A stretch of 64,000 nucleotides of DNA from Paragonimus westermani (lineage: Eukaryota > Platyhelminthes > Trematoda > Plagiorchiida > Troglotrematidae), in contig QNGE01000143.1 in assembly GCA_008508345.1 (NCBI GenBank), forward strand, positions 70,885 through 134,884, written 5' to 3'. Made by a program: the position numbers and the translations under genes. Under the pieces are notes generated by a model. That model ran no database searches. It saw only the letters and a program-made list of their open reading frames with translations, and had not been told where the DNA came from. Shown here in pieces: positions 2,669 through 60,501 of this stretch. The first letter of the stretch is position 1. Each line of letters begins with the position of its first letter.

Positions 2669-4195
2669 GAAACGAGTTCATGTCAATCACAGTTCGAACG
2701 AAACAGTCCGTCTGCTCAACCAAACGACCATCACGTTGCTTATACTGAAACACAAATTGACCGTGGGATTATTGTCAAATGTGAGGACGTGACTACCGGC
2801 AGTGTCCAGAATAGTTTGTGCGATATCAACACCATATTCATGCCCTATTTGCCAGATATGAACGCTGCTGCTCCTGTTGCGGTACAGTCTTCATCTTCTG
2901 CTGCCCTGTCAGACCAAAATAATTCTATGCTGATTAGCCCGTCAGATGCGCAGTCATCACTTGCCTGTTCTGCACCACAGACGGTCTACTCTGGACTGAC
3001 TTTTGCCTCCTTGTTCCCGCTACAGCTTGTTAATCAGCTCTCTCCTTCTACAAGTTTCACATCTAGTGAGCAACTTGGATCACATACCTGGTCCTCATCA
3101 GCCCCAAACCCTGTCTACATTCTTACTACCACTAACGATTCAGTTGGCTCACACAAAGACCCAGATGTGCTAACAAACAGTGCAGTTGATTTGCATTTTG
3201 TCACTCTTCCTATGGACAATCAGACTTCATCCTCCGGTTCTAGACCTTGTGGGAAATCTTTTGAAGTGACTGAACAGAGTTGCTCAGAGGCTGGTCTTTT
3301 GTGTCCCTCCTACCCCACAGACATTCCCCTCAATTCCCTGTTGAATGTAACAACTATTTCTGACACTCCGTGCACCGGAAGTGTCGACTTGACTCATATT
3401 TGGCGACCCGTGGAATGTGAGCTAAGTAGCCCCTCGTCCAGTCGGAATATCACTGTGGTTTCTGATAATAACCATATCGGACTCCTTCCTACCTCTGGAC
3501 ATGTTGATTTGGCTCACGACTCGACCTCTTCGTCAAACAACGACCATTCGAATTCGTTTGATCCATCGGACGCGATGTTCAATTGCGAACCGAGCACGAA
3601 ACCTGCAGGCAGCAGCTGGTCGCCACGGTTTCCTTCGCCTGTTTCTGAAACAATGTCTCCTCGTTCCACAGCCTGTCCATCCCCACCAATTTCGCAGTCT
3701 GGGCTGACCAGTTACCATTCTGAAAAGCGGTCCGATCAGCCATCGTTTCTAGGTGATTGTGTTCACGGGCCTCGGTCACAAGCAGTAATGTCTGTGTCCA
3801 CCGGATGTGAACCTCAAGCGTCATCTTCACACCAACGGAACAGCTGCGGTCAGTTCGGTTTTCCTTCAGATACTTATTCCAGCCACAACCCTATCCCAGT
3901 TCATCTTATTGTGTGTAGTTCGGATTCCGGAGATGCGCAGTTTTTGTCTCCCATATGGAGCTGTCCAACACCACCGGAGTCACTACAATCTTATTCGAAT
4001 TCAATGTTGTCTCCATCAGAACGTCATCCCGATGCCAATGTGGATCAGTGTTCTAATTTTTCTGTGGGCTATCTGATCGGTCAGAATTCCACCTACGGTC
4101 CCTTGGGATCATCGGGTGACCAACTCAACTGTACACTTTCTACATCTGTCCCCTCCGAGGTACAGTATTACGGGTTCGATAGGTCGATTCCGTGA
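2669..4195 (+). CDS. Serine-rich terminal exon, probable nuclear regulator
   Basis: This is the only long coding region in the window. A strong 3' splice site (pyrimidine tract, then CTGACAG) ends at 2668, and the frame from 2669 is open for 508 codons to TGA at 4193-4195. No convincing ATG precedes it; the first internal Met is far into the exon, so translation is expected to start in an upstream exon. The product is rich in Ser, Thr, Pro, Asn and Gln, with short serine runs (SSSSAAL, STSSSNN) and SP/TP sites (LSPIW, PTPPES). It has no membrane segment or folded-domain signature and is predicted to be largely disordered. V36-K37-C38-E39 (counted from the exon start) fits the sumoylation consensus psi-K-x-E. 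Such tails are typical of transactivation regions of metazoan transcription factors, but no DNA-binding domain is visible here, so the family is unknown. No AATAAA occurs in the first kilobase downstream. A donor GAG|GTACAG at about 4159 could alternatively splice the last 11 codons away. Confidence 0.82.
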   Translation, partial: ETSSCQSQFERNSPSAQPNDHHVAYTETQIDRGIIVKCEDVTTGSVQNSLCDINTIFMPYLPDMNAAAPVAVQSSSSAALSDQNNSMLISPSDAQSSLACSAPQTVYSGLTFASLFPLQLVNQLSPSTSFTSSEQLGSHTWSSSAPNPVYILTTTNDSVGSHKDPDVLTNSAVDLHFVTLPMDNQTSSSGSRPCGKSFEVTEQSCSEAGLLCPSYPTDIPLNSLLNVTTISDTPCTGSVDLTHIWRPVECELSSPSSSRNITVVSDNNHIGLLPTSGHVDLAHDSTSSSNNDHSNSFDPSDAMFNCEPSTKPAGSSWSPRFPSPVSETMSPRSTACPSPPISQSGLTSYHSEKRSDQPSFLGDCVHGPRSQAVMSVSTGCEPQASSSHQRNSCGQFGFPSDTYSSHNPIPVHLIVCSSDSGDAQFLSPIWSCPTPPESLQSYSNSMLSPSERHPDANVDQCSNFSVGYLIGQNSTYGPLGSSGDQLNCTLSTSVPSEVQYYGFDRSIP

Positions 4196-6189
4196 TTTGC
4201 TCATACGCGCACGGTCGAGTATGTCATCCACTTTCTCCACATGTTTTAATCGACAGATCAGTATGTCACTTCGTTTTGTTCAGTCGGATTTTTTGCTTTC
4301 GTTTTTTCCTGTCCGGAACTGCTTGATCAACGTATATATTTTCAAATCAGAACTAGTTCTTCTAATTACCTGTATTGTAACTCGGACAACTTCTGACCTT
4401 ACAGTTTGCAGTTATTTTCCTGAAAATGTCGCAAAAATGCACTCAACATTTTTTGAAAGCGCATGCTCCGTTTGCACTTCATTTGAGAGGCGATTAGAAA
4501 TGCGCTGTTCCGATAGACATTAATGGTCTGACTACGGCTGTACATGGTTGGTTTTTATTCTGTTCGCTCTTTGCGCCATCAATGACTTGTTTTCACAGCA
4601 TCTATATGTACAGATTTAAACAAAAATCGAGACAAGGTGTTTTACGGCACTTAACTGCCACCGCAACCAACATTCGTAAGTGGTGGGGGTGACAAAACGG
4701 CGATAAGTTTTAATTGGTGTTCAGTTTGTTCGGTTCTATATTTTGATTACTATAGAGAATGACATTTGGTATTGCACTTACGTTTCCTCACCATTCGGTT
4801 ACCTATGTTCATGTAACCTTGGGAAAGATTGCAACCGGATGGCTGGTATAAATTCGTCATTTGGTTCTAAGGAACACACACCTGTGTAAGTTCACAACCA
4901 TATCACCTAAAGAGGTTGATCTCGAACATTGTGAAATTAACACCAACCCGTTCAAACAAATGGTGTATCACCAATTTGGGACATTTAGAATTAGCTGATT
5001 CAGCAGTGTTCAGACTAAGCATGCTGTATGGGATCAGAACCAAGTCGCGTTGAATCTAGAACATTTGCTTACCTAATTACGCAATGTGTCACTTCGACTA
5101 TGGCGAACTTGATTCGCCCATTGTTTGAAAATGCTACCTAGTTAAGTGTAAATACGCCGAAACAATACTGTCTATCTAGCTGAGTAATAGTTCAATCGCA
5201 ACTTATGCTAGTTTTCTGCTTTGTCAACCAGCCATCCTTCGATAGCTCTCCTTAAACAGATTATCGGAGTTAACTCGCTGACGTTGTTACATGCTGTGGA
5301 ATTTACCCAATTGTCACTAAGCCAGTGTAGCTGGATAGGTTAGACTCACCAGGACGTCTCCTGTTGCTCGCTGTCATCTTTCGGTTACTTGGTCACAGCA
5401 ATTCCTGACAAACATGTTGATTGTATTTGATAGTTTTCGCCAACTGCTGTCCGTTTACCCTGTGTGGGTTTTACTGGTTTGCTCTTGTTGAGAGACAAAC
5501 TCGTTGAAGGTTTGAACTCGGTGTACGTTGTCTCGCACGGAATGTTATTCTGCTACATCGTAAACTTGGATGATCCTGTAGGTCGTGGATCACTAGGTTC
5601 TGAACTTAACGTGACAAATGTAGTAGCTTTATATTACCACCAAATTTATCAATGCATGTCAGTTTGAGAAGAGAATACGTGGCGAAAACATCCAATCCAC
5701 TGCCTGTCTAAGCTTCAACACAGAAGACAATCTAGTAGTGAGCCACTCCAACGCCATTCTGTGACTCAACTTCATGATTAGATAAACATCTTGTTATGCT
5801 TCCTGCTAGTCGCCAACATTTTCGTTCCGTATTGGACCACTGAGGTTAAAACTTGTGACATTACGTGTCCTCTTGATGTTAATCCGTTATAGACCTTGAG
5901 TGCACTGATTCTTCTCGGAATGAGCTAGCCGAAAAGTTTATGGAAATACGATCACTGCGACGCATTTTGAGTGATACTCAATTGTTAGCCAAAAATCACC
6001 TACCACCTGCCAGAAATGAAAATATGGCTGAACAAGTTTCATGAATTCTGCACTTTAAACTGGATAGAAGTCGTAGTGTTGGTGTCATCGATAGAAGAGT
6101 TGTTCTGCTTCCTCTCAAGTTGATCGAGTAACCTGAGTTTCAGTCATAAGCGAATGTGACTTGGCGTTCAGATATGACAATTCAGTCGC
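4196..6189 (+). other. Presumed 3' UTR and intergenic DNA
   Basis: The first part is presumably 3' UTR of the serine-rich gene, but no clear polyadenylation signal was seen before 5200. A minus-strand exon-like piece at 4782-4842 has a strong donor (GTAAGT) and 20 open codons, but its acceptor has no pyrimidine tract, so it is not called. Confidence 0.4.
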
Positions 6190-6376
6190 AGTTGTCAACA
6201 CGGTTGGTGCATTAAGACGTGGTCGGAGATTTGGTCCTGGTGGTGGCACTACTGACAATCCCTAACAAGAGTAGAACTCGAGTCCAGTACCTCTTTTCGA
6301 AAAGGGCTGACTGGAGGGTCTATGGAAAAGCTACGAAAGTCTGTGGGAGACGTTCACTTTATGAGGGACGTGATCT
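6190..6376 (+). mobile_element. Decayed hammerhead inverted-repeat element, plus arm
   Basis: This matches the plus-oriented arm of the family. It has a remnant of the tRNA-like head (GTCAACACGGTTG), stem I GCACTA at 6246-6251, then CTGACAA, then AACTCGAGTC, then CTCTTTTCGAAAAG and the GGCTGACTGGAGGGTCTAT tail. The hammerhead core is broken: G8 is A, and the GAAA segment reads AGAA. Confidence 0.75.
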
Positions 6377-7360: not shown

Positions 7361-7530
7361 CCACGTTTGATTGCAGCTTTCGCATTCAGGTAGACATTCT
7401 AGCCATCCTCTTTCGAAAAGAAGCGACAAACTCAAGTTTCGTCTTCACAAGTGCAGGTAATCGAGTGTCCAGTTATGGTTCGACTGGAAATCGCGATCAA
7501 CTATAGGTGATGTTCCACTTGAAATATAGT
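7361..7530. mobile_element. Internally deleted hammerhead inverted-repeat element
   Basis: 7361-7448 matches the minus-oriented arm tail and hammerhead region (GATTGCAGCTTTCGCATTCA, then CTTTCGAAAAGAAGC, then AACTCAAGTTTCG). 7489-7528 matches the plus-oriented arm tail (GCGATCAA, GGTGATGTTCCACTTGAAAT). The promoter heads and centre are missing, so two opposed tails are nearly juxtaposed. No intact ribozyme remains. Confidence 0.65.
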
Positions 7531-8488: not shown

Positions 8489-9003
8489 TTTTATAAATTG
8501 AACACAACTGATCACAGATGTCTCATCTCTGTGGACATTCCAATCAGCCCCTTTCTAAACGGTGCACTAAATTCCAGTTTCGCTGTTGCCGGAGCTTGTC
8601 AGTAATGCATATCTTTGCCAAGGCCGGGACTAGGACTTCAGCCACGATTTCGTGAGGCGACCGTGTTCTCCACTGCACTATTGACTTCACAGTAGGCACG
8701 ATTGAATTAAACTGTGCAGATGCTCAACCACATTCGCCCGAGTAATGCACATATTGCGCGATCGTTTTGAGGGGAGGGGGGAGGCACGGTAACTCACAGA
8801 AATCATTAACTTGTTGAGCATGGCCGAATTCCACATCCCAGGTATGGCATGGATGGGCATGACTAACGAGTTCTAATGTGAGTGAAACTGAAGTCTGGTG
8901 GTTCTTTTCAAAAGGAGCTAACTGGAAGGACCAGGAGAACGCGACAGCCATGATCAATTGTGAGAGATGCTCAACTTATATCAACAAAATCTGCCTGCTA
9001 GTA
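8489..9003. mobile_element. Near full-length hammerhead inverted-repeat element
   Basis: Both arms are present. The minus arm runs from tail (about 8489) through a hammerhead-like segment at complement 8564-8608 and the reversed tRNA-like head (8620-8680: GTGAGGCGACCGTGTTCTCC, then ACTGCACTATTGAC) to the inner segment (AGTAGGCACGA). The centre (8735-8800) contains GAGTAATGCACATATTGCGC and the GGAGGCACGGTAACT block. The plus arm has lost most of its head and resumes near 8850 with a second hammerhead-like segment (CTAACGAG, GTGAAAC, AAGTCTGGTGG at 8864-8901) and the tail to about 9003. Both ribozymes have core changes: G8 is A on the minus arm, and CTGATGA is CTAACGA on the plus arm. No clear target-site duplication was seen. 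Confidence 0.75.
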
Positions 9004-10879
9004 ATGAAAGTGTGTTTTCTTACATCGTCTCGTGTGGGTATTTTAAAGTACGATAACTTTCTTTCTCTCACTCAAACTTGCTGCTGTAAAAATGACAAGA
9101 AGGTATAAAGGACATCACTTGTTTCCGAAACACCACAGTTGGCTCTTCCACTTTCTTGGGGTTGAGGTCTTCCGGTCCTTGCTGCGTAGCTGTTTTGGTT
9201 TTACAAACATCGAATTATTGATGTCAAGACAAATAAATCTGTTGCCTGTTGGGTGGTAGGATATTTTCAAAATGTACTATAAGTAACTATGCTTAAAATG
9301 TTTCGTTGTGTCTCGTATTAAAATATAGATTCAAAACGTAAGTTTGATTTCGTGGGCGGTTTCCAATACATCGACGTACACTTTGCTGGGGTCACAGTTA
9401 AGTAGAGTAGAGTCTAACTGTTGTCGTCTGGTGCACAGTACTCGCAGTTACAGGCGAAACGGATTTCGAGTAAAGTTGCACTAAATGGTTTTAAATGTGA
9501 ATTGTAACAATTACGTCCACATGTGGAATTTGAAACAACGACTTTCATCCATCTAGTTCATCAAGACGACACAAAGACATACATTGTGAGGTATAAGCAA
9601 TTTGTTTTTGTTCAACAACCGATCACAAAATATTCAATTGTATGTGTTAATTTTCTGCCCATACATACGCCACCAAAACTGCAGGTGAATTCGTGGTGGA
9701 CGCGGAAGATAGAGTGTTTGGAGAAGAGATGTTCAAATCAATAGAGGACTGTCCTGTGGGTGAACAGTACTAAACACAATTCCGCCACGGACTAGGTGCG
9801 ATCAATATCACATATTAATTTTCGACGTAATATCGTTAGAGATGATCTCTTTTGTAAAGTAGGCTGATGAAGACGTTTTCCTTTGGCACTGATTATGTTC
9901 GCGAATTGGCCATGCACTCCTTTCAGTGAATTTGAGCAAGGTTGACTGAATATCCATTGGAATGTCGTTTGTTTAGTGAAGAAATATTCGCACTAAAATA
10001 GGCGTGTGAGCAATGGACTCAAATAAAGAGAACTGTGAATGCAGCCGACTCCAGGTAGCTTTTCTGTGAACAGACCGACTAGGTATACAGTCTAAGCATT
10101 GAATTTGAAATGGTGCATATGTTGGCAGGATGACCTAAAATTGCTAACGGAAATGACTGAGCACATCCCCAAGTAGCTAGTGCAGTTGACTATTCAACAA
10201 TGATGACTCAACTAGTCGGTCTGCAAAAACCCGAACAGAAATCCGGCGTCTACGATCTTGAGACACTTAATCGCAACAATCAATGTGAATTATCCCACCA
10301 GTTGGTTCACGGTCTTAGTATACAGTCGCAATACAAAGAATTTGGGTTTTTCAAAAGCGTTGTCAATCCAACATAACACACCGGCTCTCTGTTAACAGAA
10401 TATGCTGATGCAATCATTCTCATTGTCGCGGTATTGAAACTGGTTACCCCCACCCCGATATGCACTCATGCGATGTTAGCGAACCGAATTCTTACGTCTT
10501 GCAATGTCGTCTTGATGAGTTTTATGTTACTCATAACCATGAGCCTTATCTAGTCTGTTTTTCCTGTTGGAAGAAATTCCCGAAAATCCCGATTACGCGG
10601 CCACCGTTTTGTCTATGCAGTTTTGCCAGTCGATGTTATACGACTATGGTTTGAAAGCTTTAAGTTACCATAGTTACCGTGACACGTAGGGAACACTTTT
10701 AATGGGAGAATATGGTGTCGTTAGCCTTTGAAATCACCGTACATGCTGGATGGCACTATTTCGATTGACAGTGGAATGTGATTATTTAACAGCAATAGAA
10801 GTCCAATACTTATCGGTTACGTTGGTGAATTCCAGCATGAACTGCTTGAGAAATCCAGTTTGGACAGTCAGACCGCTGA
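9004..10879. other. Non-coding stretch
   Basis: No secure feature. A strong donor-like GTAAGT at 9334 follows a frame closed by stops. An AATAAA-type signal near 9232 has no associated coding region. Confidence 0.4.
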
Positions 10880-15168: not shown

Positions 15169-17524
15169 GATCGTATCAGTCAGAATACAACGAGAGCAGT
15201 CAGAAATGTTCCGGGATGAGTTTCAGGGTACGAAAACACTACAGGTGAGATAAGGGGAAAAATAGTGTTCACTGTAAGAAAACGGAACACCGTTGCACAA
15301 ACTAAAGTGTTCAACACTGTTGTGCTCGCAACCACTGCGGAACAGTTAGCATTAACCCACTGTTCATCGGTTAAAGTGAGCCCCTGTACCTGTGTACAAA
15401 CCCTTTCACACATGAATTACAGTCTGGCAAAGAGTGGTCGTTGGTAAGCATCACCAAAATTTCACAGAACCAAACGATTGTACCACATCGCGCGGATAAC
15501 TATTCGATTAGGGTTAACAAAATTCCGACAGAAGTTGTTGAAACTATCACAGCTTTTGATAGAAGTAAGCATTTCAACATCATGTTCACAGGGTATGGCA
15601 CCGTGATATTAGGTGAAAACCGAGACAAAATCTTTGCGGATTGTATCAACGGTGGTTGGTCGTTTATCGCTGACTAACAAGAACAATAAGTTGGAACATG
15701 ACTGTCAAAAAAACACGATTCCATGATGGCAATCAAGAGAAAACAGATAGATGTGGACGATAAAATCTTGCGAAACGAACAAAATCTAACTGTTGTATTA
15801 ACCAGTAACCACAACTTTTGACGATTAGAGCGGAGGACCTGAGACTAATCCGTGTGTTAGACAAGATGAATCTTACGGCGACTAAGACATTTAATTAGAT
15901 AGAAGATAAGTAGTTTAAAGATTTCTAAAAATGATTAAGGCGAATCTCGGGATGTTCTTTGCTGGTCAATTTCATGATAGAATAAATCGTGCATGTAGCC
16001 TCATAAACATTGCTTGACATGCAGTGACAGTGATGCAGTCTTTCTGTACGTGGCAATGAACAGTTTCTTGTGTTATTGAAAGTGTTCACTCCGTGTTAAA
16101 TGGTTGAAGGTAACGGATGCCCGCAGAAATGTGTGATGGTTCTTTGATTCAATCAGAGATTTACGGTTTTACGTAAAGGATCTTCTTTTATGGTACTCAC
16201 ATAATTTTGAAAAGAGTGAAGTCTCACAAATTATGCCGCAACTCTTGATAGATATATTGATCATTTTTTCAAAAATAAAACACTGGTTAGTATCAGTAAA
16301 GGCGGTCAAACTAATCTGAACCATAACCAATATGTTGACCAGAGTACACTTCAATCACCATACCATGTAATCAATAGATATAACGATGACCGAATCCATG
16401 TCCCAATAAATTGGTATTCATTTTTGTGCGGATCTGGGTATTTGTGAGTTGACCTATACAATTGTCTTTGTGTACGATGTTTCAAGCTAGAACACACAAA
16501 ACCAGATGAATATGGCCTGTCATAGAGAGGCTTCTTGTAATTGTCCTTTCCTTAATTTCTGTGAAAAGATTGAGTACATTAACTTCTCATATTAGAAGCA
16601 CTGTGTACACATCGAACAAAAGCAGGTTATTTTGACGTTTCATAAGGGTAAATAAAATAGCTGACAGTTACATAAGAACAGCACGGAATTTGATTTGTTA
16701 TGTACCGAATACCATTAGCACCTGAGTATAAATTTGTCTGAGTTAGTGTTTTTAAGGTAAACGGTCACTTGCAGTTTTGTGCTTGTTCGACTGAAATCTT
16801 TAGCAATATTAAACATTGTTTTGTGTACATCTGATACGAATGTATTCACTATATTAACCTGAGCCTTGAGATGTGATGATTTTGCCATACCAACTGAAAG
16901 ATAATTGTTAGGATAGTTTATACTATCGTCTTGTATACACGTGATTGATTTTCATTCAGCATTTACAGATAGGCTAGTGACATATAACGAGAACAAAAAT
17001 CGGATTAAGCGTTTGATTGCAAAAGCCTGTTTAAATGTGAGTGAGGTTCACCTTACCAGACTGTGTACTGTCCTGTGCTACCAAATAGGGTCTAGTTTTC
17101 AATCAGTATCTAACACGAGGACTTCACACACACAGTAAAATATTAACAGACTGCAGAAGAACGAGCGGTGGTTACCGTAGGTCATTAGAAAGTTTCCGTT
17201 GGAAATGAAATTCTGTGAGTTCGATGACCTAATTTAAGTTTGGTTGAATTATACACGCCTGAAAACGGTCACCCTCGTTACATTACAGAATGCTGTGGCC
17301 TATTGAGTCTAGAACAAACGTTGTGAGATTGTACTTACATATTATTGTCAAACAAATTTACGCTGTTTCCGAGTGAAACACAGGGAACCGCAAATCTTGC
17401 AAGTTGGTGGTTTTATGTAAGCCATTATCAGGTGACAAATCTAGCCATTACTGTTTGTCTCATTCAAGCGGTTTTCTTTCCGAATAAATCAGAATCCACA
17501 TCTGAAGATAGATCAACCGTTGAC
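15169..17524. other. Non-coding stretch
   Basis: No secure feature. The plus frame at 15441-15677 is open for 78 codons with a mixed polar composition, but it has no splice signals or recognisable family. Confidence 0.4.
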
Positions 17525-17700
17525 TACATATTAGACACCACCGAACTGTCAAATCTGAACAATCCGCCGCTTTCGCTTTTGACCAGTGATTGCCTCTAGA
17601 GGAGACACAGTGACTATCTTGTTACCTCCAATCGGTAACCACGCGATTAGGACTTCCGAGACAGATCGAAATCCCCGATCACGTTGAATCTGCTGTGCGA
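17525..17700 (-). mobile_element. Fragment of hammerhead element, inner and centre part
   Basis: It matches the reversed inner segment (TTAGACACCACCGAACTGTC, then AAATCTGAAC), the centre (CTCTAGAGGAGACACAGTGA, CTCCAATCGGTAACC) and a following decayed tRNA-like head (CGATTAGGACTTCCGAGACA, then GATCGAAATCCCCGATCACG). It lies immediately left of another copy starting at 17711, so one element may have inserted beside or into the other. Confidence 0.7.
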
Positions 17701-17710
17701 TATTTCAGAT

Positions 17711-18289
17711 CATTGATGAGTAGTCGGGGACTTGGTTTGCTTTCAAGCTGAACACCACTCACATTTGATCTCAGCCTTCGCATTCAGATGGACGTTCCAG
17801 CCAGTCTATTTCGAAAAGATGCACTAGACTCGAGCCTCGTTCTTGTTAGAGCTCATCAATAATGCATGTTCTTGTCGCGGTTGGGACAGAAACTCTGGTC
17901 ACGCTTTCATGAGACAGCCGTGTCGACCTCACATTAGGCACGACCGAAACATCAAATCTGAACACTTGTGAACAATGATCAGGTTGCCCGATCTACTGGA
18001 GAGGAGACACATTAACTGTCCTGTTAACTCCAATGCATAATCCTGGGACCATGAGTCACGAGGCGGGTCAAAATTGTCGATCTAACTTAACCTAAAATCG
18101 TGGATTGGGTTCGAAACTCGGTCGTCGCAAAGATGTGTACTGCTGACGAGCCCTAATGCGAGCGAGACTCGAGTCTAGTGCGTCTTTTTGCAAGAGGCTG
18201 GCTGGAGTGTCCATCTAAATGCGAGCGCTGCGATCAACTGTGAGTGATGTTCAACTTGAAGTTAAGCAAACCGCCGATTACTGATCAGT
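17711..18289. mobile_element. Full-length hammerhead inverted-repeat element
   Basis: This is the best complete example of the layout. The left end GATGAGTAGTCGGGGACTTG is the reverse of the right end (CCGATTACTGATCAG). The minus arm holds a tail, a hammerhead-like segment at complement 17821-17865, a reversed tRNA-like head and the inner segment (CATTAGGCACGACCGAAACA). The centre carries GAACAATGATCAGGTTGCCC and GAGGAGACACATTAACTGTC. The plus arm has a decayed head (GGGTTCGAAACTCGGTC) and a hammerhead-like segment at 18137-18181. The minus ribozyme has C3 changed and GAGG for GAAA; the plus one has GAGA for GAAA. Both are predicted inactive. No clear target-site duplication was seen. Confidence 0.9.
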
Positions 18290-19892
18290 TGTCATTGAGC
18301 TTCTTTCGTTTAGCCTGTACTGGTGTATTACGTCCATCACTGTAGTATTCGGTATCGAAGGTCCAACCTTTCTAAAGGCATGCCATAGATTAAGGACGAC
18401 GAAAACAATTTAAATTTGTTTTGGAAGAAAATTTAAAAATATTGGCTCTCTGTTGGTTGACCGTTGGTCGCTGGCGGTTTAGATCATCACGCCTTAACAC
18501 AGACGAACCCGACCGATGCTGTTCTCGATGCCAAAGCATTTGCCAGATTCGTCTGAAGTTCAGGCTATTGTGCAAAGTTCACATTTTGAGGTGTCGGTTT
18601 AATGCTTCGGTTTTGACTATCCTGCTTAAAAGACGATATTCAAAGTGTGTTGCATAATTACCAGCAATGAGAAGTTTTATTTGACCGTAAATATCAAGAT
18701 GTATGTACGTTCTGTTAACACTGCTAAGTGCAATCCTCCAGTGCAAAACGATTAATCTCATGAAATTCATGTGCGTTGCGTAGATTTCTAACCATTTTAC
18801 ATTTTTGACCGTTCACGGTGACACAGCTTCACGGATTCAATTATTGGGAAAAGGCAACTAAATTTTTGCATACGGCTAAGCTAATGGACAAAGTTGGAGC
18901 AATAAATGCGGTCATTTAAGCAGTTGCTCCCACTTCTAAACGGTTCGGTGAATTTGATTGCAACTAGGGACTGTGTAGAGTGATCAGTTCGTGTTTTGCG
19001 ATTTGACCGAATATGTTAGCTTGTGGTAAGCAAAAATATCACTGGAAGTGTTCAGCGCGGTTCGGATAGTTTTAATTTCATTTTATGTGAGTTGACGGAT
19101 TATGTGAGCTGTGATCATCGTTGATTTAAACTTAAATTATACATAGTACTGAGCCCATTCTCCAACTCAGTTTCAACCAGTTACGTATGAATTTGTTTTA
19201 ACACTGATACCCCTTCTCGATTTCTATCCATAATGTTACAGCACATGGTCGGTTTATTTCATTCTGGACTTATCAAGTGACTTTATGGATACTGTATGTT
19301 AGACTGAAAAAAAGGAAACGTTGCGTTTGATTTTTAGCTTGTTCAGATGGTTGAGTTTTTAATAGATTTAACCAAATTCCCGATTAATACTGATCACAAG
19401 TGCATCCTTTTTATTTGCTGAGGTATCGTGTTCCTCAACTGCACAACTTCAACGCTCAGTGATCAGAAGGACTGATCTAACTGGTAGACCAGTTGGAGTG
19501 TTTCTCATGCAAGTCAAGTGCTGAATACCATGCTTGGTTTGTTGATGTTCCCATATCAGGGTTGAATAGCTAGTCGGGTTCAAACTGATTCGACCTACTT
19601 CGTATCATATCAGACCGAAGTGATTTGTCTGTCGAACCGTCGACTTTAATCGATCATCCATTAGTAGTTTGAAAGTTTTGTTGGGTGTAACAAATATAAC
19701 GTCGGCCGAGCCCTGCCAAAACAATCTGCTTGACGTAATGAACATGGAGTAGCCAGCAGGTGAGAGAATTATCTATCGTCAACTTCCATTGATGAGGACT
19801 AAAGTGAACACACACGTCCAATGTGGACGCCACAGGAATCCATGCCCAGGCAAATAAATAATATGCCAGAGAATTCCTCTAAGCCTGGTTAT
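18290..19892. other. Non-coding stretch
   Basis: Nothing secure. Small AT-rich inverted repeats occur near 18400-18440. Confidence 0.4.
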
Positions 19893-22923: not shown

Positions 22924-22935
22924 AGATAACTGTTT
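22924..22935 (+). repeat. Left target-site duplication, AGATAACTGTTT
   Basis: An exact 12-bp direct repeat with 23358-23369, immediately outside the two ends of the inverted-repeat element. Confidence 0.85.
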
Positions 22936-22964
22936 TAAAGTTGACCAACACTCACATTTGATCG

Positions 22965-23122
22965 CACATTAGGCACGACCGGATTATCAAATGTGAACGC
23001 TCAACCACTCTCGCTTGTGAGCAATGATCAGGTTGCCTGATCGTCTCGAGAGTTACTGCCTGTTAACTTCAATCGGGAGTGGTTGAGCGTTCAGATTTGA
23101 TAATTCGGTCGTGCCTAATGTG
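22965..23122. repeat. 46-bp inverted repeat with 66-nt loop
   Basis: 22965-23010 and 23077-23122 are reverse complements at 44 of 46 positions. They are the inner segments of the two arms (CACATTAGGCACGACC against GGTCGTGCCTAATGTG at the outer ends). A transcript through here would fold into a long hairpin directly upstream of the promoter head. Confidence 0.93.
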
Positions 23123-23129
23123 AGGTCAA

Positions 23130-23184
23130 TGGCGCAGTGGTTAACACGGTTGCCTCATGATTAGAACGGCCGGAGTTCGAATCC
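23130..23184 (+). promoter_or_regulatory. tRNA-like RNA polymerase III promoter, boxes A and B
   Basis: Box A TGGCGCAGTGG (23130-23140) fits TRGCNNAGTNGG-type box A, and box B AGTTCGAATCC (23174-23184) differs at one position from GGTTCGANTCC. Their order and spacing are as in tRNA genes. Downstream lies the ribozyme, so a polymerase III transcript would include it. The head is not a functional tRNA: the cloverleaf pairing is not maintained. Confidence 0.8.
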
Positions 23185-23202
23185 CGACCATGGCAAGGAT
23201 AT

Positions 23203-23247
23203 GCACTACTGATGAGCTCTAATGAGAGCGAAACTCGAGTCTGGTGC
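23203..23247 (+). ncRNA. Hammerhead ribozyme, intact core
   Basis: Stem I is GCACTA (23203-23208) with TGGTGC (23242-23247), six pairs including one G-U. The core CTGATGA is at 23209-23215. Stem II is GCTCT/AGAGC with loop AATG (23216-23229), followed by GAAA. The palindromic ACTCGAGT then gives a minimal stem III, and the cleavage triplet GTC ends at 23241. All invariant positions (C3, U4, G5, A6, G8, A9, G12, A13, A14, H17) are present. Predicted self-cleavage lies between 23241 and 23242. The very short stem III matches minimal hammerheads of metazoan retroelements, which are known to work best as dimers. Confidence 0.93.
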
Positions 23248-23357
23248 TTGTTATTAAAAGAGACTGGCTGGAAAGTCTATCTGAATGCGAAGGCTGCGAT
23301 CAAATGTGAGTGATGATCAACTTGAAAATAAACCAACTTCCCGACTACTCATCAGTA

Positions 23358-23369
23358 AGATAACTGTTT
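23358..23369 (+). repeat. Right target-site duplication, AGATAACTGTTT
   Basis: Exact partner of 22924-22935, immediately after the end of the plus-arm tail. Confidence 0.85.
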
Positions 23370-25417
23370 CTTAATTGTTTACTCAAATTCCAGAATATCT
23401 CATCAGAGTTAGTTGTATGAACCTGTTTCCCAATTGTTCAATAGTTTGCGGCAAATTTTCCCACAAATTACCTGGGGATTCTTATTGTCTACTGCAACCA
23501 TGTGTTTTTGTTTACTGTGTTCGTCCTCAATACTCCCGATTTTGAACTACACTCTCTCCGAACGTCTATACAGTGGACTGTGTTTCATCTTTTGTTATTG
23601 ATGGTTAGCTGTTACTTCTTACGCCTCGAATCGTTTCATTGTCAGCTCACTCACATGAGGAACATCCGACATCAGATCACTTGCCTCTCAAATTGGGAAG
23701 TGTAATTTCAAGAGCATTGCCAATGTGACAAGGGTGCCAACCACAAATTCTTGAGCATATATTTGCAAATTAAGAAATAACATGTGATCACAACCTGTGT
23801 ACTGTCTCTTCATCTGCTCGTTTTGAACAGAGGGATTGGACTTGAGTTACACTACTTGTCTGAGCACATTACCGTAACACATCCCTTGTTATACCTGTGA
23901 GTTTAAATTCAATTCAGCCAGGCGGCCAAACGATTACATTTGGTCACAGCTGTACTCTCTTATAAACTCGTTTAGTTCCGTTGTTTTCAGCAACCTTTCA
24001 CGTGAACTAACAGTGGCTGTCCAAGCGTACATTTGAAATCCCCGCATTATCTTCACGACAAAATAGACAGTTGTTAACGAATTTAATGAACACATTTGTT
24101 AAAAAACCCAACATGCTATGTGGATGAAATATTCAACTTGACGAACTTGTCACCACTGGGGCCAAACATGAGTTTTAGCCAGACTGTGACGTAAAAAAAT
24201 GCTGCAGAGCGAAAAATACTGACAAACGTTGTTTATTTTAAATCGAACTGTGTGAAACCTTATGCTGTATTCTAACAAGGCACAGGACAACCAGAATAGC
24301 AGCTTCTTTTGAGAAGAATACCTCAAGCGATTGATGATTAAACCGGACATTTAGATTATCCGGGTTGAGTAAAATCGGACATTGTAAAGTTACAACAGAA
24401 CATCAGAGCAGGGATTTATTGTTAGTTTTAAGGCGCTGGTTAGAAGTTACTTGCGATCTTCATAGGTAACTGTGTATATTGTAAAGTTTACACACGGAGA
24501 CCAAAATGGACTTTTTTTTGGAAATCACAAGATGAATGTGCTAAAAACGGTATTCGAATCTTTGGCCTCCATGTAACGTGTGAAGTTCCCAACCACGTTA
24601 GATTCATTTGCTTATTAGAATCTAAAGAGAGCAAAATCGGTCGTTGTGTGTTGACGTCAGATTGGGTAAAAATGCATATTTAATAAGTTCCGATTTCCGA
24701 ACCAGTCACCAGTTAGACCGTGTCCATCCGACAGACAGGATCAAACCAAGACACATTGATTTAACTCGGACCTGTTCGCAGTTGCTTTGATTAACACCAA
24801 ATTTATGAGTTAAACTGGAAGTACGACTTTATTGTCGCACCTATGAAGGTAAAATACATATTCAGATTTCGATTTTCCATATGTATTGTTTAACTTTGAT
24901 CTGAGGTTAATAAACTGAGAAAAACTTATTTTTTTAGTTGTATATAAGCTTTTCCATGGAAGTCAGCCGTTCCCCCATTTTGTCTGTCTCGGCAGTGTGA
25001 CGTGGAAACCATGCATGCAAATGCGTATATAGCGTCAACTGGGTACCGTCTGCAAACCTGGAGAGCATTTTGCATGGGGCAATCACGTGACTTTGCCAGA
25101 GGTCAATTTATGAAGCGATCTGTTCAGCTTCATCCAAACCTTGAATAGTTTTGATCCTAATGTTGAGGAATGCACAGTGCATTAGTCTCAGTTGGTTAAA
25201 CCCCGATCTTCACGTTAAAAGCATTTCATGCAGACAGTTAACCTCTTCTGGACCACGACTAACTATGCTCAAATTTTGAAACAATGACTGATAACTGATG
25301 GTAAGTGGACAGTCCGTAGTCTCCATTTGCTAGGTTTATTAATGAGGTTGATTACCGGCTTCAAGACTATTGTGCCGTAACTGCATTAATGACCAGACAC
25401 GGAAAACTGTTCTTGAT
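23370..25417. other. Non-coding stretch
   Basis: No gene recognised. The plus frames at 23413-23705 are short, hydrophobic and overlap each other, typical of chance. Confidence 0.4.
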
Positions 25418-25790
25418 AGTAGGGAGGGGGATTTGGTTACGACAAGTTGAACACCACCCGCAGCTGATCCCAGCCGTGGCATTCCCACAGATTTTCCACC
25501 CAGCCGTTTTCGTAGACTTGCATGAGGCTTGAGTTTCTCTGTTGTTAAATCTCGTCAGTAATGCACATCCTTTCCCTGGTCCGGATCAGAACTCCGTTCA
25601 CACTCCTGTGAGGCAATCATGTTCATTACTGCACTACTGACCTCGCATTGGACACGGCTGAATAATCCTACATGAATGTTCAAGCAAATTCGTTTGTGAG
25701 TAGTGTCCAGGCTGTCCGAATGCTTCGAGGTGGGGGACACGGTAACTGTTCTTTCAACTCCAACCGACGACTTCACAATTGCCACTTTTC
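25418..25790 (-). mobile_element. Decayed hammerhead element, minus arm and centre
   Basis: From the left end (GTAGGGAGGGGGATTTGG) it shows the reversed tail (CAAGTTGAACACCACCC, GATCCCAGCC), a hammerhead-like segment on the minus strand (25529-25575: CTGACGAG and AAAC kept, stem II lost), a reversed promoter head (CCGGATCAGAACTCCG, GTGAGGCAATCATG), an inner segment (CGCATTGGACACGGCTGAAT) and a centre (GAGGTGGGGGACACGGTAAC). The plus arm is not recognisable beyond about 25790. Confidence 0.8.
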
Positions 25791-28700
25791 TCCAAGCTGA
25801 AACCACGGAAAGGAAACGTGCTGGGTGATATTTTGGTTACTGATGAGTGGTAGATTTTGAGATTATGGGTTGAACATAATTCACGATCGATCACGGGTTT
25901 TCATAGACAAATACTTGCCACTCACTATACTTCAGATTGTAGCATCAAACTCGAGTTACGCTTTAGTTAGGTCTTATTTGTTGTGTTTATGCTTATCACG
26001 CCTGAGACTCGAACTGCGGCTATGCATTCACGAGGCCATCGCGTTTGCCAATGCATCACTGAATTCGATCATTTCCTTTTGACTACAGCAAAAACTGCTT
26101 CATATTCTTATTAAGAATCAGTGTTATAGTTTTTGATTACAGCCCGCAATCTTGTTGCCGACACGTTTCAGCCAGACCAAAATCTCTGACTTTCTCTCAA
26201 CCTAACCGTTGGTAAATTTGTCTGAAGGCGAAAGTTGTTGTTGTGTGTGAATGAAGTTCACTATTGCCAAACCAAACCGTGGACTGCTGGCTAATGAGTT
26301 TTGGTTGCTATCCAGACTCGCATAAACATGTCTGAACTCGTCATGTTTCATGTCGCATTTACTTTTCGACAGTTTGAAAACGTGTTGACACCTGATATTC
26401 AACCAGTGAATGACATTTCGCGTTTTGATCAACCTTCAATGATGGTCACCAAAAGTTGATTCGCCATAAATCGTTCTTCGTGATTACAGCAAGCCGTTTC
26501 TCATAGTTTTGCTCACTTGTGTTTTCTGCGCTTTAATGATATTCTTCATTCGAGTGGTCATTTGAAACACCACAAAATAGAGGTCAAGTTGAAATGGAGA
26601 AGTTTATAACAGTGTGTGAATTTGAGAGGTTAATTATGATTCTTTTGAATAATAATGTGTATGCTATTAGCACTGTGCCTCAAAGTACTCATTCAGTCCT
26701 GACAGTGATTATACGGAGCAATTCTGTCTTCGTTTACTCCGAAAACTAGTGGTTTTTGTACACCGGTAATTTTTCACAGAATCTAGGAGCCAAGTAGCAT
26801 CTCTTGCGCAGTTTTGTTTAATTATTTTCTGTTACTAGACTATCCGAATTTCACTTTGGTGCCATTTTTATGGGGATTAACACCATAACAAGCACTAATT
26901 TCAGCACTCTTAACATTCACAGACCGTTAAAACCCATTCAGCTGAAAATCAGTAATAGTTGTTCTGCACAGTTTGTTCATGAAATTAATCATTCTTTATA
27001 TCATCAAAGTTTAGTGGCGGTAATTTTACCCTTCTGAGTACAAGCCAAATATACCGCAACTCAGAAAAATTTGGACTTATTCCTAGACGTGAGCTGATTA
27101 TTATGATACAGATTTTACTCTAGTGTAAAGTTTATCACTTCTTCCACAATAATTTTCAACTGGAATTATGTGCAATTTGGTTAAATGTAACAATGAAAAG
27201 TTTAGGTGAAAATAGGGTGCACAATTCAGTTGACAGCATTACTTGATAAGAAACATAATGCTGAGGTTCAGCTTCTAAGGTATTTTGATAGGATGTTTTC
27301 GTATATCCGATGATTTCGAACAGTGGGTGTGCTGTAATTAATTGTAGATAGAAAGTAAATTTGTAAAAATTATATCCATTCAGTAACTTGAATTTTTTAC
27401 GGGAATCACTGGAGTCATAAGAATGATACAAAGTGATGGAGCGACATGAATACTCAGGTGCAATTGAATACCTGTTGAGCTGCTTAAAAAAAGTGACAAA
27501 TTGAGAGTAGATTGACTTCACCAGAAAGAATTGGCAAAATAGACAGTTGCGAGAGTGAAATTGGAAAAAAGCCAGAATATGACGAATCGATTGTGTTGTG
27601 AGGGAGGCGTAACTCAACTAGTGCATAGAAAACATTAAATCCACGCAGTTCAGCAAACAGCAAAAAGTAACTGACTAGAGATAGTTGTCGACGGTTGAGC
27701 ACAATTTCATCCCGCTAGAGTGATTCTGTTATCTGAACCACCTGATGACCAGTTCTGTCTGAATTTTTGAAATTGTACTTCGAGACTTCGTTTGACGTCA
27801 TTCACTGGTGACGTTATCAGTATGGATTATGATGGGGTGTTCCACGTCAAACACATCGCATTTTTGATAAGTGGATCATTTTGTCATAAAACAAGTGGAC
27901 CATCTGTGAGCTGGTGATCACGCATACTGTGACTGGTGGCGTATTTGATAGACATTTTCGGGTGATTGAGACAAGTCACCTTTAAGGATATACTCCAATT
28001 CAGGAAATCTGTCAAGGAGTGATAACGAGCGAAGTGGTGTGATTCGTTTAGTTGTTTTCTGGTGTAGTATATCAAAATGGCAGCGTCTCTTACTAGATAC
28101 AGTACTCGAGCCTATTTATTCAGCCTAAAGTGTGGGTTCTTCGGAGAATCGCGCATTGTGGAAGTGTTCTCAGTCTGCTTCATCTCAAAACCCCCGTAGG
28201 CACCTCAATGTTGAACCGACTTGCTTGACCGTTGAGATATAGCCTGAGTCAATCTAAGATGACTCATACCGTTTTTTAAATAACAGTCCAACTTTGTCCC
28301 CAACGCCTAAGAAATTTAAAAGACTACTTTACATTCGAACAATTTACTCTCAGAAAGTTAGCTACATGTCTTTACCGTAGAGACTGACGCAGGAATATAC
28401 AAGCGTATCAAGTTTTTGCAATTAAACATTGTGAAGTCTACACACACGCAAAAAGCGTTCGTTTTCACGATAAAGCTGATTAGAAAAGTCACTAGGGAGA
28501 GCTGAGTACACAAGGCCACGGGAATTGGAGGTGAACATCCATTACCACTAAACTGTCGAATGTATTTGTTTGACCTTGAAACAACCTATTAGTTAGCACG
28601 GACTGCTGGAATATTCTCAACACCGGATCGAAGATGCTTGGCGTGGTTGATAAATATTCTGATAAAACACAACATTAATTTATGAAGACACGTCAGGGGA

Positions 28701-57032: not shown

Positions 57033-57209
57033 AGTGCATATCCTTGCCACGGCCGGCAGTTGAACTCCGGCCATTCCAACCATGAGGCAACCGTGTTAAC
57101 CACTGCGCCATTGACCTCACATTAGGCACGACCGTATTATCAAATCTGAACGCTCAACCACTCTCGCTTGTGAGCAATGATCAGGTTGCCCGATCGTCTC
57201 GAGAGGAGA

Positions 57210-57389
57210 NNNNNNNNNNNNNNNNNNNNNNNNNNNNNNNNNNNNNNNNNNNNNNNNNNNNNNNNNNNNNNNNNNNNNNNNNNNNNNNNNNNNNNNNNNN
57301 NNNNNNNNNNNNNNNNNNNNNNNNNNNNNNNNNNNNNNNNNNNNNNNNNNNNNNNNNNNNNNNNNNNNNNNNNNNNNNNNNNNNNNNNN
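57210..57389. other. Assembly gap of 180 N
   Basis: The run of N lies exactly between the two inverted arms of the hammerhead element, where a palindrome would hinder assembly. The plus-arm promoter head should lie inside it. The true length is unknown. Confidence 1.
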
Positions 57390-57404
57390 CCGTGGGAAGG
57401 ATAT

Positions 57405-57449
57405 GCACTACTGACGAGCTCTAATGAGAGCGAAACTCGAGTCTAGTGC
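57405..57449 (+). ncRNA. Hammerhead ribozyme, intact core
   Basis: Stem I GCACTA/TAGTGC (57405-57410 with 57444-57449) has six Watson-Crick pairs. The core CTGACGA keeps all fixed bases; position 7 is free in hammerheads. Stem II is GCTCT/AGAGC with loop AATG, followed by GAAA, the palindromic ACTCGAGT and the cleavage triplet GTC ending at 57443. The A-U pair in stem I replaces the G-U of the 23203 copy, keeping the pairing. TTTT follows at 57453-57456, a potential polymerase III stop. Confidence 0.93.
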
Positions 57450-57552
57450 TTCTTTTCGAAAGACACCGGCTGGCTGGAAGTCTATCAGAATACGAACATT
57501 GCGATCAAATGTGAGTGATGGTCAATTTGAAATTAAAAGAATTCCCCGACTA

Positions 57553-60501
57553 CTTATCAGTAATCCAAAAATGTCTACTTACATTTAGAATTGCCAATTT
57601 CTGTTTCTTCATATTAATACTCTTCGAGCTGTGCAAAATTACTGAAAACTGTGCCAAAACAGGTGTGCTTACACTTACAAAGCGAGCTTCATCCCATTTT
57701 CTGATGTAAGAATGAGGACGGTCTAAGAAAATAGAGTTTCACGTAATGAATTTTTTATGCATGATGAAATAGCGGGTTAGATGTCACTTGTGCTTGATGG
57801 CTGTTTTCACAGACTGAAATGATGTTTGCTGTTTGTCTCTTTCGAAGAGCGGCATGAAAAGTTTCCCTTCGAAGCAACAAATGGTTCTCTACAGAATAAC
57901 ATCGATGACAGCTACTTAGGAGGTTCAGAAGTAGAAAAATACTCCAGGTTTGAAAAAATCCCTGCGGTGATAGAAAAGATAAACTCAGTGGTGGCACATG
58001 GTTTTGTATGCAGTTCAGCTGCTCGTCTCATGATCACTTGCCGATTGTTGTTGAGTTTTCCGATTCACAGAAGCAGGTTGGCCCAATGCATTCGTCACAG
58101 TTTTTGTTTTTTTGAAACCGCAACTTAATTCTCATTAAAGCTTTTTCATCCCCACGAAAATATGTTGTTTGTTACGCTGAATATAGAGGAGTTTAGAGGT
58201 TTTATTGCTTACCTGTCAAGTACTAAGAAAACATGGAAACCTTACGATGTTTGTCCACTTCCTGGAAGTTGTAATCACTTATAAAAACTCAAGCTGCAAT
58301 CCAAATTGCTGAGATTATGGTCCAATTTACAGGTTAGATAGGACAGTATGAGCAGAATCACAGTGCAAATAACCAACTGTGCTCAGAGGCAAAGCAACAA
58401 AGTGCTAGTGGACCATGGAGTTAAATCAAGTGGCTTGGTTGTTCGTAGTAAAATGTAATTTGTAGAAGGTATTTCCCGATGGCAACAAATTGTCTGTTTC
58501 ATAACGAGGGTAGTGAGGGTGTTACATCTTCGCCATAGAAACGCATCNNNNGAAACGCATCAGAGGTCGCGCTTAAACAAATCAAAACGCTTTCAGCCAG
58601 GTGGTGTCCTTCGTAGAAGCTACCATTTTGGAGGTCCGGTTTGTTAGACATGGCCTTTGAACTTGTTTAAAGCTCCTTAGTAATGTAAAACTGTGTACCA
58701 GTAAGCGGTTCAAGTCATGATTATGTTTTTACAAGATAGATGTGCTGAGCGCTGATTTGCGGAGCTAAAACTCCGCGTGAGCAAAAATGTATATTTAAGT
58801 ATCAATCACATGTGAGGTAGCTGAGAAGAGATACAAGAAGGGAAATAAGATTGCAATCTAGTATGAACTGATAATTTCCGCATATGGCGCTCGACATTGG
58901 TAATCGTGATGTCTACGTGTTACTGTTATATGCAATTAAGTGATTTTGTTCTAGTATATATTTCCTTGGCCAACTATTTCACAGCCACTTGAAACTCGAG
59001 CAAGCGTGAACCACTTGACACCGACGACTGCATATACATGTCCTGTTTGTTTATCGAATAAAAACTCCTTTCACCACTAGAATGTTTGGCTCAAAACGCC
59101 ACTATTTTATTTGAGAGAACCTTGTCCATATGTAGATATGGAAAGGTCGACCTACACCAGATCTCTACAAAACTGTCACCAGACTCCCCGTATTTATGGT
59201 TGTGACTTTTGTTTCAGCAACTTTGTGTCTAGAACTTAACCGTACGTAAATTTGCACGTTTGTTCAAAATGTAAAACAGACTACACAAAAACTGTTCGAA
59301 TTTGTCTGGTTGCACTCAGGATTGTGTTGATAAAAGTTTTAAAATTATTTAGAATGAATTAAATCTCAAAATATGTAAGACTAGTGAAATGTGATTACTG
59401 CAAAACTCGAATTGTTTTCCTTTAACAAAGTACAAAAGGTCTCATTTTGGTCAAGATTTTAAGTCCGTTATAAAATGATGACTGCACTTTATATGTCTGA
59501 AAGAATTTTATCGGAAATTCTCTCATCAAACTTTAGGCAGAAACGTCTTTTTTTTGAAGAAATTCACTAGGCCATGCTTTAGAAGACAAATTTTGAGGTT
59601 AGTATTTTGGGAGCTGCAACAGTGATTACAATGTGTACATGTCACAAGACAATCCGTGTGTACCTCTTATGACCATATGACCCTCTGTTTCATTGCTTTG
59701 ATTCGTTTCATCGCAATTTTTGTCTGGTGCAGCTGGGACGAGATGAAACAGATTGTTGACAACCCACATCACAGTGCTGCCAGTTCTAATAAACGTCTCG
59801 TGAAACATTATTTCAAGCAACACTCCAGTCTGATTTTTACCGTTCTTTCAGGATTTGCCAGTACAATGATTCGGCTAAAACACAATGGAATAGATATCTT
59901 TTAGCGATATATCATCTCTACCTGCCAAACAGTTCAAAGAACAGTTCAAGTGATGGACCGGATAATTGTTGACTTCAAGTTGATTTGATGTCCCAACTTT
60001 TTCAAGCAAATCGTAGTGCAACAAAGTGTAACAAAGTGATGAAGTTGGAAATATCTTCAAAGGAAACTCCATTGGATTCAAATTGTGAAGAGTACTACCT
60101 TAGCAACAGCTGAATTGTTATCAGTGCAGTCCGCAATATAATGACTTACAGTTCAATTTATTAATATGTCGAATCATAATAGGGATCGTGAAAAACCAAC
60201 CAATGAACACATACTGTAGCAGATAATCGCAATTTCATTCACCGTTGTGTGTTATTTCGTTTAGTTTCCAACCTACAGATTTGTGTTTGCAGTTTACCCA
60301 AAAACTAACTAGAAAAGAAGTTTGGTTTTAAACTCTTTTGAACTGAGACAGAGTTGAATCGACCGTAATAAGAGTTCGAAATCAAACGTAAACTTAGCTG
60401 AGTCATTTGTGAATGAAATATTAACTTCCGTCCAGTTTAGAATTGAAGCGAACCACAAAATAATGAATTTTCTTTCGGGTCATTTTGTCTATCCATTGCA
60501 G
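57553..60501. other. Non-coding or intronic stretch with weak exon candidates
   Basis: Two coding-like pieces lie on the plus strand. 57823-58127 is open to a stop with a charged product (LFVSFEERHEKFPFEATNGS) but has a poor acceptor. 59733-59904 follows a good acceptor (TTTTTGTCTGGTGCAG) and encodes WDEMKQIVDNPHHSAASSNK and more before a stop. Neither gives a recognised family. They could be upstream exons of the 60.5-63.3 kb gene candidate. Confidence 0.35.
58548..58551. other. 4-N gap flanked by a duplicated 10-mer
   Basis: GAAACGCATC occurs on both sides of the gap (58538-58547 and 58552-58561). This looks like two contig ends that overlap but were not merged, so about 14 bases are probably artefactual. 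Confidence 0.9.

What the first reader, a model, noticed from the sequence alone, without database searches (positions are those of the whole stretch)
17711..18289. Inverted-repeat element with one hammerhead on each strand
The two arms are mirror images from the ends through the tail, the ribozyme region and the promoter head, with a shared centre. Sm-alpha elements are described as directly oriented units. A head-to-head pair with outward-facing promoters and ribozymes is unusual, and I do not know of it as a described class. A read-through transcript would carry one sense and one antisense ribozyme and could fold into a long duplex.
Basis: partly seen in the sequence, partly recalled or inferred. 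Interest (0 to 1): 0.85.

Follow-up and report, generated by a model that had tools for sequence, protein, structure and literature searches.

The report
Two-headed insertion of a ribozyme retroelement
The back-to-back pair of ribozyme-bearing repeats is real, but it is an old, broken example of a recurrent product in this flatworm genome: the repeat seems to insert by copying its RNA from both sides of one DNA cut at once, as Penelope-type retrotransposons are thought to do, which hints at the enzyme that moves this class of repeat.

Summary
The inverted pair is real but smaller and less symmetrical than described. Arms 17714-17858 (-) and 18144-18287 (+) align at 115/144; family similarity goes on to about 17909 and 18095. 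The centre is left-arm sequence only, and the left arm runs on as a direct tandem to 17517. Both hammerhead cores are mutated; neither arm keeps an A box. The unit is a 428-position repeat: C', M, Pol III-like head, type I HHR, AC-rich tail. In an unbiased sample (window + 200 kb) 8 of 33 clusters are head-to-head, 0 tail-to-tail; random placement gives 0.65. Of 27 pairs examined, 19 from a biased choice, 10 are flanked as a whole by 9-15 bp duplications; 18 have one outer end in each of two tail classes about 30 nt apart, none has two short ends. Junctions vary. This resembles the published insertion pattern of Penelope-like elements. Best explanation: single insertions by target-primed reverse transcription from both target strands, driven in trans by a PLE-type enzyme. 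The arrangement is known for PLEs; I found no report of it on Sm-alpha-like elements. No autonomous PLE was identified.

The parts
17517..17705 (-). partial second unit (unit positions 1-201: C', M, first bases of head), joined head-to-tail to the left arm
   Evidence: unit model E 1.2e-44; 142/188 identical to family consensus
17708..18082 (-). left arm: unit positions 25-428 (most of C', M, head with A-box deletion, HHR, tail)
   Evidence: unit model E 1.1e-104; 300/366 identical to consensus
17821..17865 (-). left hammerhead, core mutated (UUGAUGAG, CGAGG)
   Evidence: alignment; weak Rfam hit E 0.52
17708..17740 (-). AC-rich tail of left arm, from the proximal inferred RT start site to the unit end
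   Evidence: mapping of unit 396-428; consensus positions 397-426 are 73% A+C, positions 1-396 44%
18083..18092 (.). junction of the two arms, 10 bases assigned to neither
18093..18292 (+). right arm: unit positions 227-427, 5'-truncated inside the head (B-box-like 18108-18118, no A box), HHR, tail
   Evidence: unit model E 2.2e-51; 157/195 identical to consensus
18137..18181 (+). right hammerhead, core mutated (CGAGA)
   Evidence: Rfam RF00163 29.2 bits, below gathering 34
22936..23357 (.). younger head-to-head pair of the same family (left arm with internal deletion, right arm with intact HHR core 23209-23233)
22924..22935 (+). 12-bp target-site duplication AGATAACTGTTT, left copy (repeated at 23358-23369)
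   Evidence: p 0.0007 of 2990 random pairs; p 0.0002
8491..9005 (.). head-to-head pair: - arm unit 90-395, + arm unit 230-420
57033..57565 (.). probable head-to-head pair; centre hidden by 180 N (57210-57389), so not counted as a pair
25413..26066 (-). direct partial tandem: unit 191-428 then unit 1-423
5892..6361 (+). direct partial tandem: unit 299-424 then unit 1-392

Best explanation
The locus is one old insertion of a non-autonomous, hammerhead-bearing SINE-like retroelement (unit about 428 nt). Shown on young relatives, not on this copy: head-to-head pairs can be single insertions between one pair of duplications; their outer ends fall mostly in two tail classes about 30 nt apart; their inner ends are variable. 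Inferred: an enzyme of the Penelope-like kind cuts both strands of the target with a stagger of about 9-15 bp. Each freed 3' end primes reverse transcription on element RNA inside the AC-rich tail, one almost always at the distal site (...CUACUCAUCAG) and the other usually at the proximal site (...GUUCAACUUG), sometimes further along a tandem RNA. Each cDNA runs a variable distance towards the RNA 5' end and the two are joined. The result is tail'-HHR'-head'::head-HHR-tail between target-site duplications. Tandem RNA (or an RNA circle) as template would explain the left arm running on into a second unit. At 17.5-18.3 kb the pair has since decayed: intact HHR cores and A boxes are lacking, so no function of this copy is expected.
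For: Unbiased census: 8 HtH, 23 single, 2 direct, 0 TtT among 33 clusters (46 arms); null HtH mean 0.65, maximum 4 in 2000 placements. Of 27 HtH pairs (8 from that sample, 19 from loci chosen by similarity): ends S/T 18, T/X 7, T/T 1, X/X 1, S/S 0; duplications at p<=0.01 flank 10 of 27 whole pairs (4 of the unbiased 8), against 3 of 29 single or direct loci, 2 of which are the element's own tail sequence by my reading. In all 10 duplicated pairs one arm ends at or within a few bases of ...CAACTTG and the other of ...CTCATCAG; L046 and L015 are the loosest. Duplications are 75% AT, background 57%. A pair of about 100 bp made of tails only (L024) has an 11-bp duplication. Within-pair arm identity is above the between-locus mean in 9 of 12 pairs tested. 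PLE precedents: head-to-head inverted pLTRs, 31-bp optional tail on one, 8-10 bp TSDs (PMC3846280); an Anolis PLE protein cuts and extends both strands, starting at two adjacent internal RNA sites in an AC-rich stem-loop (PMC11167929).
Against: No autonomous PLE was found: PF01541 gave one match at E<=0.001 (150 of 281 candidates scored), which reads to me like the host gene SLX1, and 23 ORFs scanned held no PLE; no dedicated RT search could be run. The finding's own pair has no clear duplication (p 0.67; taken from 17708 a 7-bp match, p 0.06), an end at unit 201 that the two-site picture does not predict, and arms less alike (0.701) than the mean to other loci (0.749); two other pairs behave so too. 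Arm identity above the independence value (12 of 12) is no support, since the between-locus mean exceeds it as well in 11 of 12. The in vitro paper reports no difference in start site between strands, whereas here the two ends usually differ. No strong stem-loop is predicted in the tail (z 0.41 to 1.52). 17 of 27 pairs show no duplication at p<=0.01.
Confidence: 0.65

Rival explanations
1. The arms are the terminal repeats (pLTRs) of an unseen full PLE of this genome, not of a separate non-autonomous family; same insertion mechanism.
For: PLE pLTRs carry minimal type I HHRs and occur in partial tandem and inverted.
Against: A Pol III-like A/B-box pair in the consensus head (2 mismatches; 2 of 500 shuffles as good), though in single copies only 6 of 13 checked arms keep it at that place with 3 or fewer mismatches; tandem units of 428 positions without room for an RT ORF; no PLE domain among the 23 ORFs scanned.
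Confidence: 0.15
2. Snap-back or self-priming: one cDNA folds back and is copied, giving a hairpin-derived inverted repeat (self-priming, on an antisense template, is proposed for PLEs).
For: PMC3846280 argues for self-priming from palindromic junctions and says head-to-head is the commonest arrangement (passages).
Against: Outer ends fall in the two tail classes and usually one in each (18 of 27); a fold-back copy would be expected to end anywhere. Junction overlaps are no longer than in simulated junctions without microhomology (8 of 26 at -5 or below against 31% in simulation; L046, overlap 59, was left out of the 26).
Confidence: 0.11
3. Twin priming as in L1: one RNA, an inverted upstream piece beside the 3' piece.
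For: Gives inversions inside one TSD (recalled).
Against: In most pairs the two arms overlap on the RNA through tail and HHR (e.g. L002 unit 7-397 and 232-426) instead of being consecutive pieces.
Confidence: 0.03
4. The palindrome itself is the copied unit (MITE or foldback-like element, the reader's inverted dimer class).
For: Inverted arms, flanking duplications.
Against: No conserved centre: inner ends differ from locus to locus; 23 of 33 clusters are single arms.
Confidence: 0.03
5. Separate insertions that landed next to each other, or rearrangement of tandem arrays.
For: The family is dense in the window (24 hits in 64 kb).
Against: 8 HtH and 0 TtT within 25 bp against null means 0.65 and 0.71; duplications flank whole pairs in 10 of 27.
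Confidence: 0.03

Closest known systems
Sm-alpha / Sj-alpha SINE-like elements of schistosomes
   Same: Trematode host (ORF 2666-4195 matches Opisthorchis and Dicrocoelium proteins); type I HHR with very short stem III (my reading of the sequence); Pol III-like boxes in the consensus; many copies (5840 first-look candidates, 40 scored)
   Different: Head not recognised as a tRNA by Rfam or ARAGORN, whereas Sm-alpha elements were picked up as tRNA-Gln-TTG-like (PMC2770079, passages); head-to-head pairs are not mentioned in the passages read. No direct sequence comparison was made
Non-LTR retrozymes of animals (PMC7229834, PMC7761336)
   Same: Type I HHR repeats of 150-450 bp in dimers and more; no ORF; TSDs longer than 4 bp
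   Different: Here often dispersed, 5'-truncated and inverted; circRNA not tested. Those papers suggest PLEs as mobiliser from shared HHR type, tandem copies and co-existence, and the review says the repeats show no motif pointing to a partner; here there is an insertion signature
Penelope-like elements (PLEs)
   Same: Head-to-head inverted terminal repeats, partial tandems, ~31-nt optional tail on one side, short TSDs (8-10 bp in the passages read, 9-15 here), AT-rich targets, type I HHR
   Different: No RT/GIY-YIG ORF in the unit; small unit with Pol III-like head

Membership tests
Sm-alpha family | sequence homology to S. mansoni Sm-alpha | not tested
   no Sm-alpha sequence at hand; only the Rfam HHR models were compared
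Sm-alpha family | type I hammerhead inside a SINE-like repeat | tested here: met
   RF00163 at 57405-57449 above gathering score; intact-looking cores in several copies; cleavage not tested
Sm-alpha family | Pol III boxes / tRNA-like head | tested here: inconclusive
   consensus A/B boxes matched by 2 of 500 shuffles; no tRNA hit
Non-LTR retrozyme | tandem repeats of 150-450 bp with type I HHR | tested here: met
   unit of 428 positions; head-to-tail joints at three window loci; L003 has units 1-428 and 8-428 plus 58 positions in a row
Non-LTR retrozyme | self-cleaved circular RNA | not testable with these tools
   needs RNA
Penelope-like element | ORF with telomerase-like RT and GIY-YIG endonuclease | tested here: not met
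   428-position unit without such an ORF. So it is not filed as a PLE
Penelope-like element | head-to-head inverted terminal repeats, one with a ~31-bp tail | tested here: met
   18 of 27 pairs S/T, 0 S/S; the finding's own pair is not of this kind (ends 201 and 427)
Penelope-like element | short TSD around the whole insert | tested here: met
   10 of 27 pairs at p<=0.01; not for the finding's own pair
DNA transposon (MITE/foldback) | conserved palindrome as the repeated unit | tested here: not met
   variable inner ends, 23 of 33 clusters single

The most novel reading that the evidence does not exclude
Sm-alpha-like hammerhead SINEs and animal non-LTR retrozymes are satellites of Penelope-like elements. 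Each insertion is a paired event in which both strands of one staggered cut prime at dedicated, different sites of the AC-rich tail (a distal-class end is present in 26 of 27 pairs), so palindromic pairs are the default product and single arms are those in which one side copied little or nothing.
Probability: 0.4. Interest if true: 0.75.

Novelty: new variant of a known kind. Interest (0 to 1): 0.6.

Why it matters
Which enzyme moves animal retrozymes and Sm-alpha-like elements is open in the papers read: the review says the repeats carry no motif that would reveal the partner (PMC7761336, passages). The two-site tail, the head-to-head pairing and the duplications form a sequence-level signature that can be scored in any genome. 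A short non-coding element also shows a PLE-like insertion pattern in clean form and favours two-ended priming over self-priming. If such pairs are as common genome-wide as in the sample, they put self-complementary sequence at very many places.

Tried and rejected
The 63% blastn self-match over 590 nt runs through the centre, but the unit model assigns the centre to the left arm alone. A first arm model had wrongly started the right arm at 18014. Junction microhomology looked present (overlaps to -19, and -59 at L046) but simulated junctions show as much (L046 left out). Hidden short partners of single arms: of 25 chains tested (two of them beside the N run and so not testable) three reached p<0.05 (0.003, 0.010, 0.047), so most singles look single. 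A tRNA origin of the head was not supported. The exact HHR pattern had no match in viral contigs, and the locus none in plasmids. A tail stem-loop was not supported. 18 of the 19 open frames of 150 aa or more in fetched loci were scanned for domains; the one left out overlaps another. Papers: PMC7229834 (part 2 of 6 and passages), PMC11167929 (parts 1-2 of 4), PMC3846280, PMC7761336, PMC8490949, PMC6155905 and PMC2770079 (passages only); one search fetched an unrelated paper by a guessed id, not used. Nine paper searches were made; by title and start of abstract none listed a report of inverted Sm-alpha-like pairs, which says nothing about papers not held or not opened.

Full report
Observation. 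The locus was read on the + strand and modelled on both. The repeat finder gives an inverted repeat of 117 nt, 82% complementary, 285 nt apart. A profile of the repeat family, built from window copies only, resolves a unit of 428 positions: C' (1-112), M (113-192), a head with A/B-box-like motifs (193 to about 260), a type I HHR (271-315) and a tail (to 428) (the part names are mine). Five shuffled windows gave no hit. It finds 24 stretches in the window at E up to 0.01. At the finding the left arm spans 18082-17708 on -, then continues head-to-tail into 17705-17517; the right arm spans 18093-18292 on + and starts at unit position 227. The mirror symmetry thus covers the last third of the head, the HHR and the tail. 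Both HHR cores carry changes (left CGAGG, right CGAGA for CGAAA), and neither arm has an A box.

Is it more than chance? The window and 20 stretches of 10 kb taken at one fixed position in 20 large contigs (200 kb, of which 20,148 N) hold 46 arms at E below 0.002, in 33 clusters: 8 head-to-head, 2 direct, 23 single, 0 tail-to-tail. Random placement with random strands gives 0.65 head-to-head on average and never more than 4 in 2000 trials. The pair at 57 kb is split by 180 N and is counted as two singles; the arms at 7361-7524 face each other 48 bp apart and are counted as singles.

How are pairs made? I examined 27 head-to-head pairs: 8 from the unbiased sample and 19 from loci near the top of a search with the inverted query (6 from L002-L008, where L003 and L006 are one place, and 13 from 20 further places fetched), a biased choice. 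Duplications flank the whole pair in 10 of 27 at p<=0.01 (5000 random position pairs), 4 of them within the unbiased 8. Among 29 single or direct loci that passed the filters 3 reach that level, and two of these are the element's own tail by my reading. The outer ends were classed as S (unit 385-408), T (415-428) or X (elsewhere). Pairs are S/T 18, T/X 7, T/T 1, X/X 1, S/S 0. In all 10 duplicated pairs one arm ends at or within a few bases of ...CAACTTG and the other of ...CTCATCAG. A T end is missing from one pair only (L011:600-1029, ends 211 and 373). The X ends of the seven T/X pairs are 58, 67, 93, 112 and 201 in tandem chains, and 353 and 382 in two arms that may be eroded; the finding itself is X/T (201/427). 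Inner ends differ between loci. Of 26 junctions (L046 left out, overlap 59) 9 carry 4-23 unassigned bases, and overlaps are no longer than in simulation. A pair of two tails alone, about 100 bp, has an 11-bp duplication (L024).

Sequence relation of arms. Of the 14 pairs then known I tested 12 (L011:600-1029 and L024 left out). Within-pair identity is above the between-locus mean in 9 of 12; the three exceptions are the finding (0.701 vs 0.749), L020 and the 8.5 kb pair, all diverged. It is above the product expected for independent arms in 12 of 12, but the between-locus mean exceeds that too in 11 of 12, so this second measure shows nothing.

Comparison. PLEs are described with head-to-head inverted pLTRs, a 31-bp tail optionally on one of them and 8-10 bp TSDs (PMC3846280, passages). 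A purified Anolis PLE protein cuts and extends both target strands and starts at two adjacent internal RNA sites that bound the tail, in an AC-rich stem-loop; weak priming, likely from the RNA 3' end, was also seen (PMC11167929, parts 1-2 of 4 read). Here consensus positions 397-426 are 73% A+C against 44% upstream, but no strong stem-loop is predicted. The duplications are 75% AT against 57%. That paper saw no strand difference in start site; here the two ends usually use different sites, which it does not predict. Two 2020 papers name PLEs as candidate movers of animal retrozymes from co-existence, tandem copies and shared HHR type (passages).

Function of this copy. None expected. If transcribed through, the region would fold into a long hairpin (MFE -269.9 kcal/mol for 17708-18292, no shuffle control); whether that matters is not tested.

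Host. An ORF at 2666-4195 matches an Opisthorchis viverrini and a Dicrocoelium dendriticum protein, the only two hits (28-29% identity), so probably a trematode; the assembly has 823,446,929 bases in 9701 contigs. No autonomous PLE was identified: PF01541 gave one match at E<=0.001 among 150 scored of 281 candidates, which I read as SLX1-like, and 18 ORFs from fetched loci plus 5 from the window held LTR-type reverse transcriptases, other domains or none.

Noticed in passing
57210-57389: A run of 180 N lies in the centre of a probable inverted pair, as expected if the assembler stumbled on a palindrome or the stretch is withheld.
   Followed up: no
9210-9375: Weak Rfam hit to SCARNA7 on + (28.7 bits, E 0.0069, gathering 65), just downstream of the 8.5-9.0 kb pair.
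   Followed up: no
2666-4195: Open frame of 509 aa without Pfam domain at E 0.01; its best match, from Opisthorchis viverrini, carries zinc-finger Pfam domains (domain names of the accessions recalled).
   Followed up: partly
17517, 31825, 22959: Three window copies stop at unit positions 196-201, close to the presumed Pol III start of the head, and L011:600 at 211; a recurrent break there is unexplained.
   Followed up: no
L021:1048-5174: LTR retroelement, Ty3-like by my reading, with reverse transcriptase, RNase H and integrase domains.
   Followed up: no
L003:1005-2084: One full unit, one nearly full unit and a fragment in direct tandem beside an inverted arm; the facing hammerheads read CTGAGGAG and CGGACGAG.
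   Followed up: no
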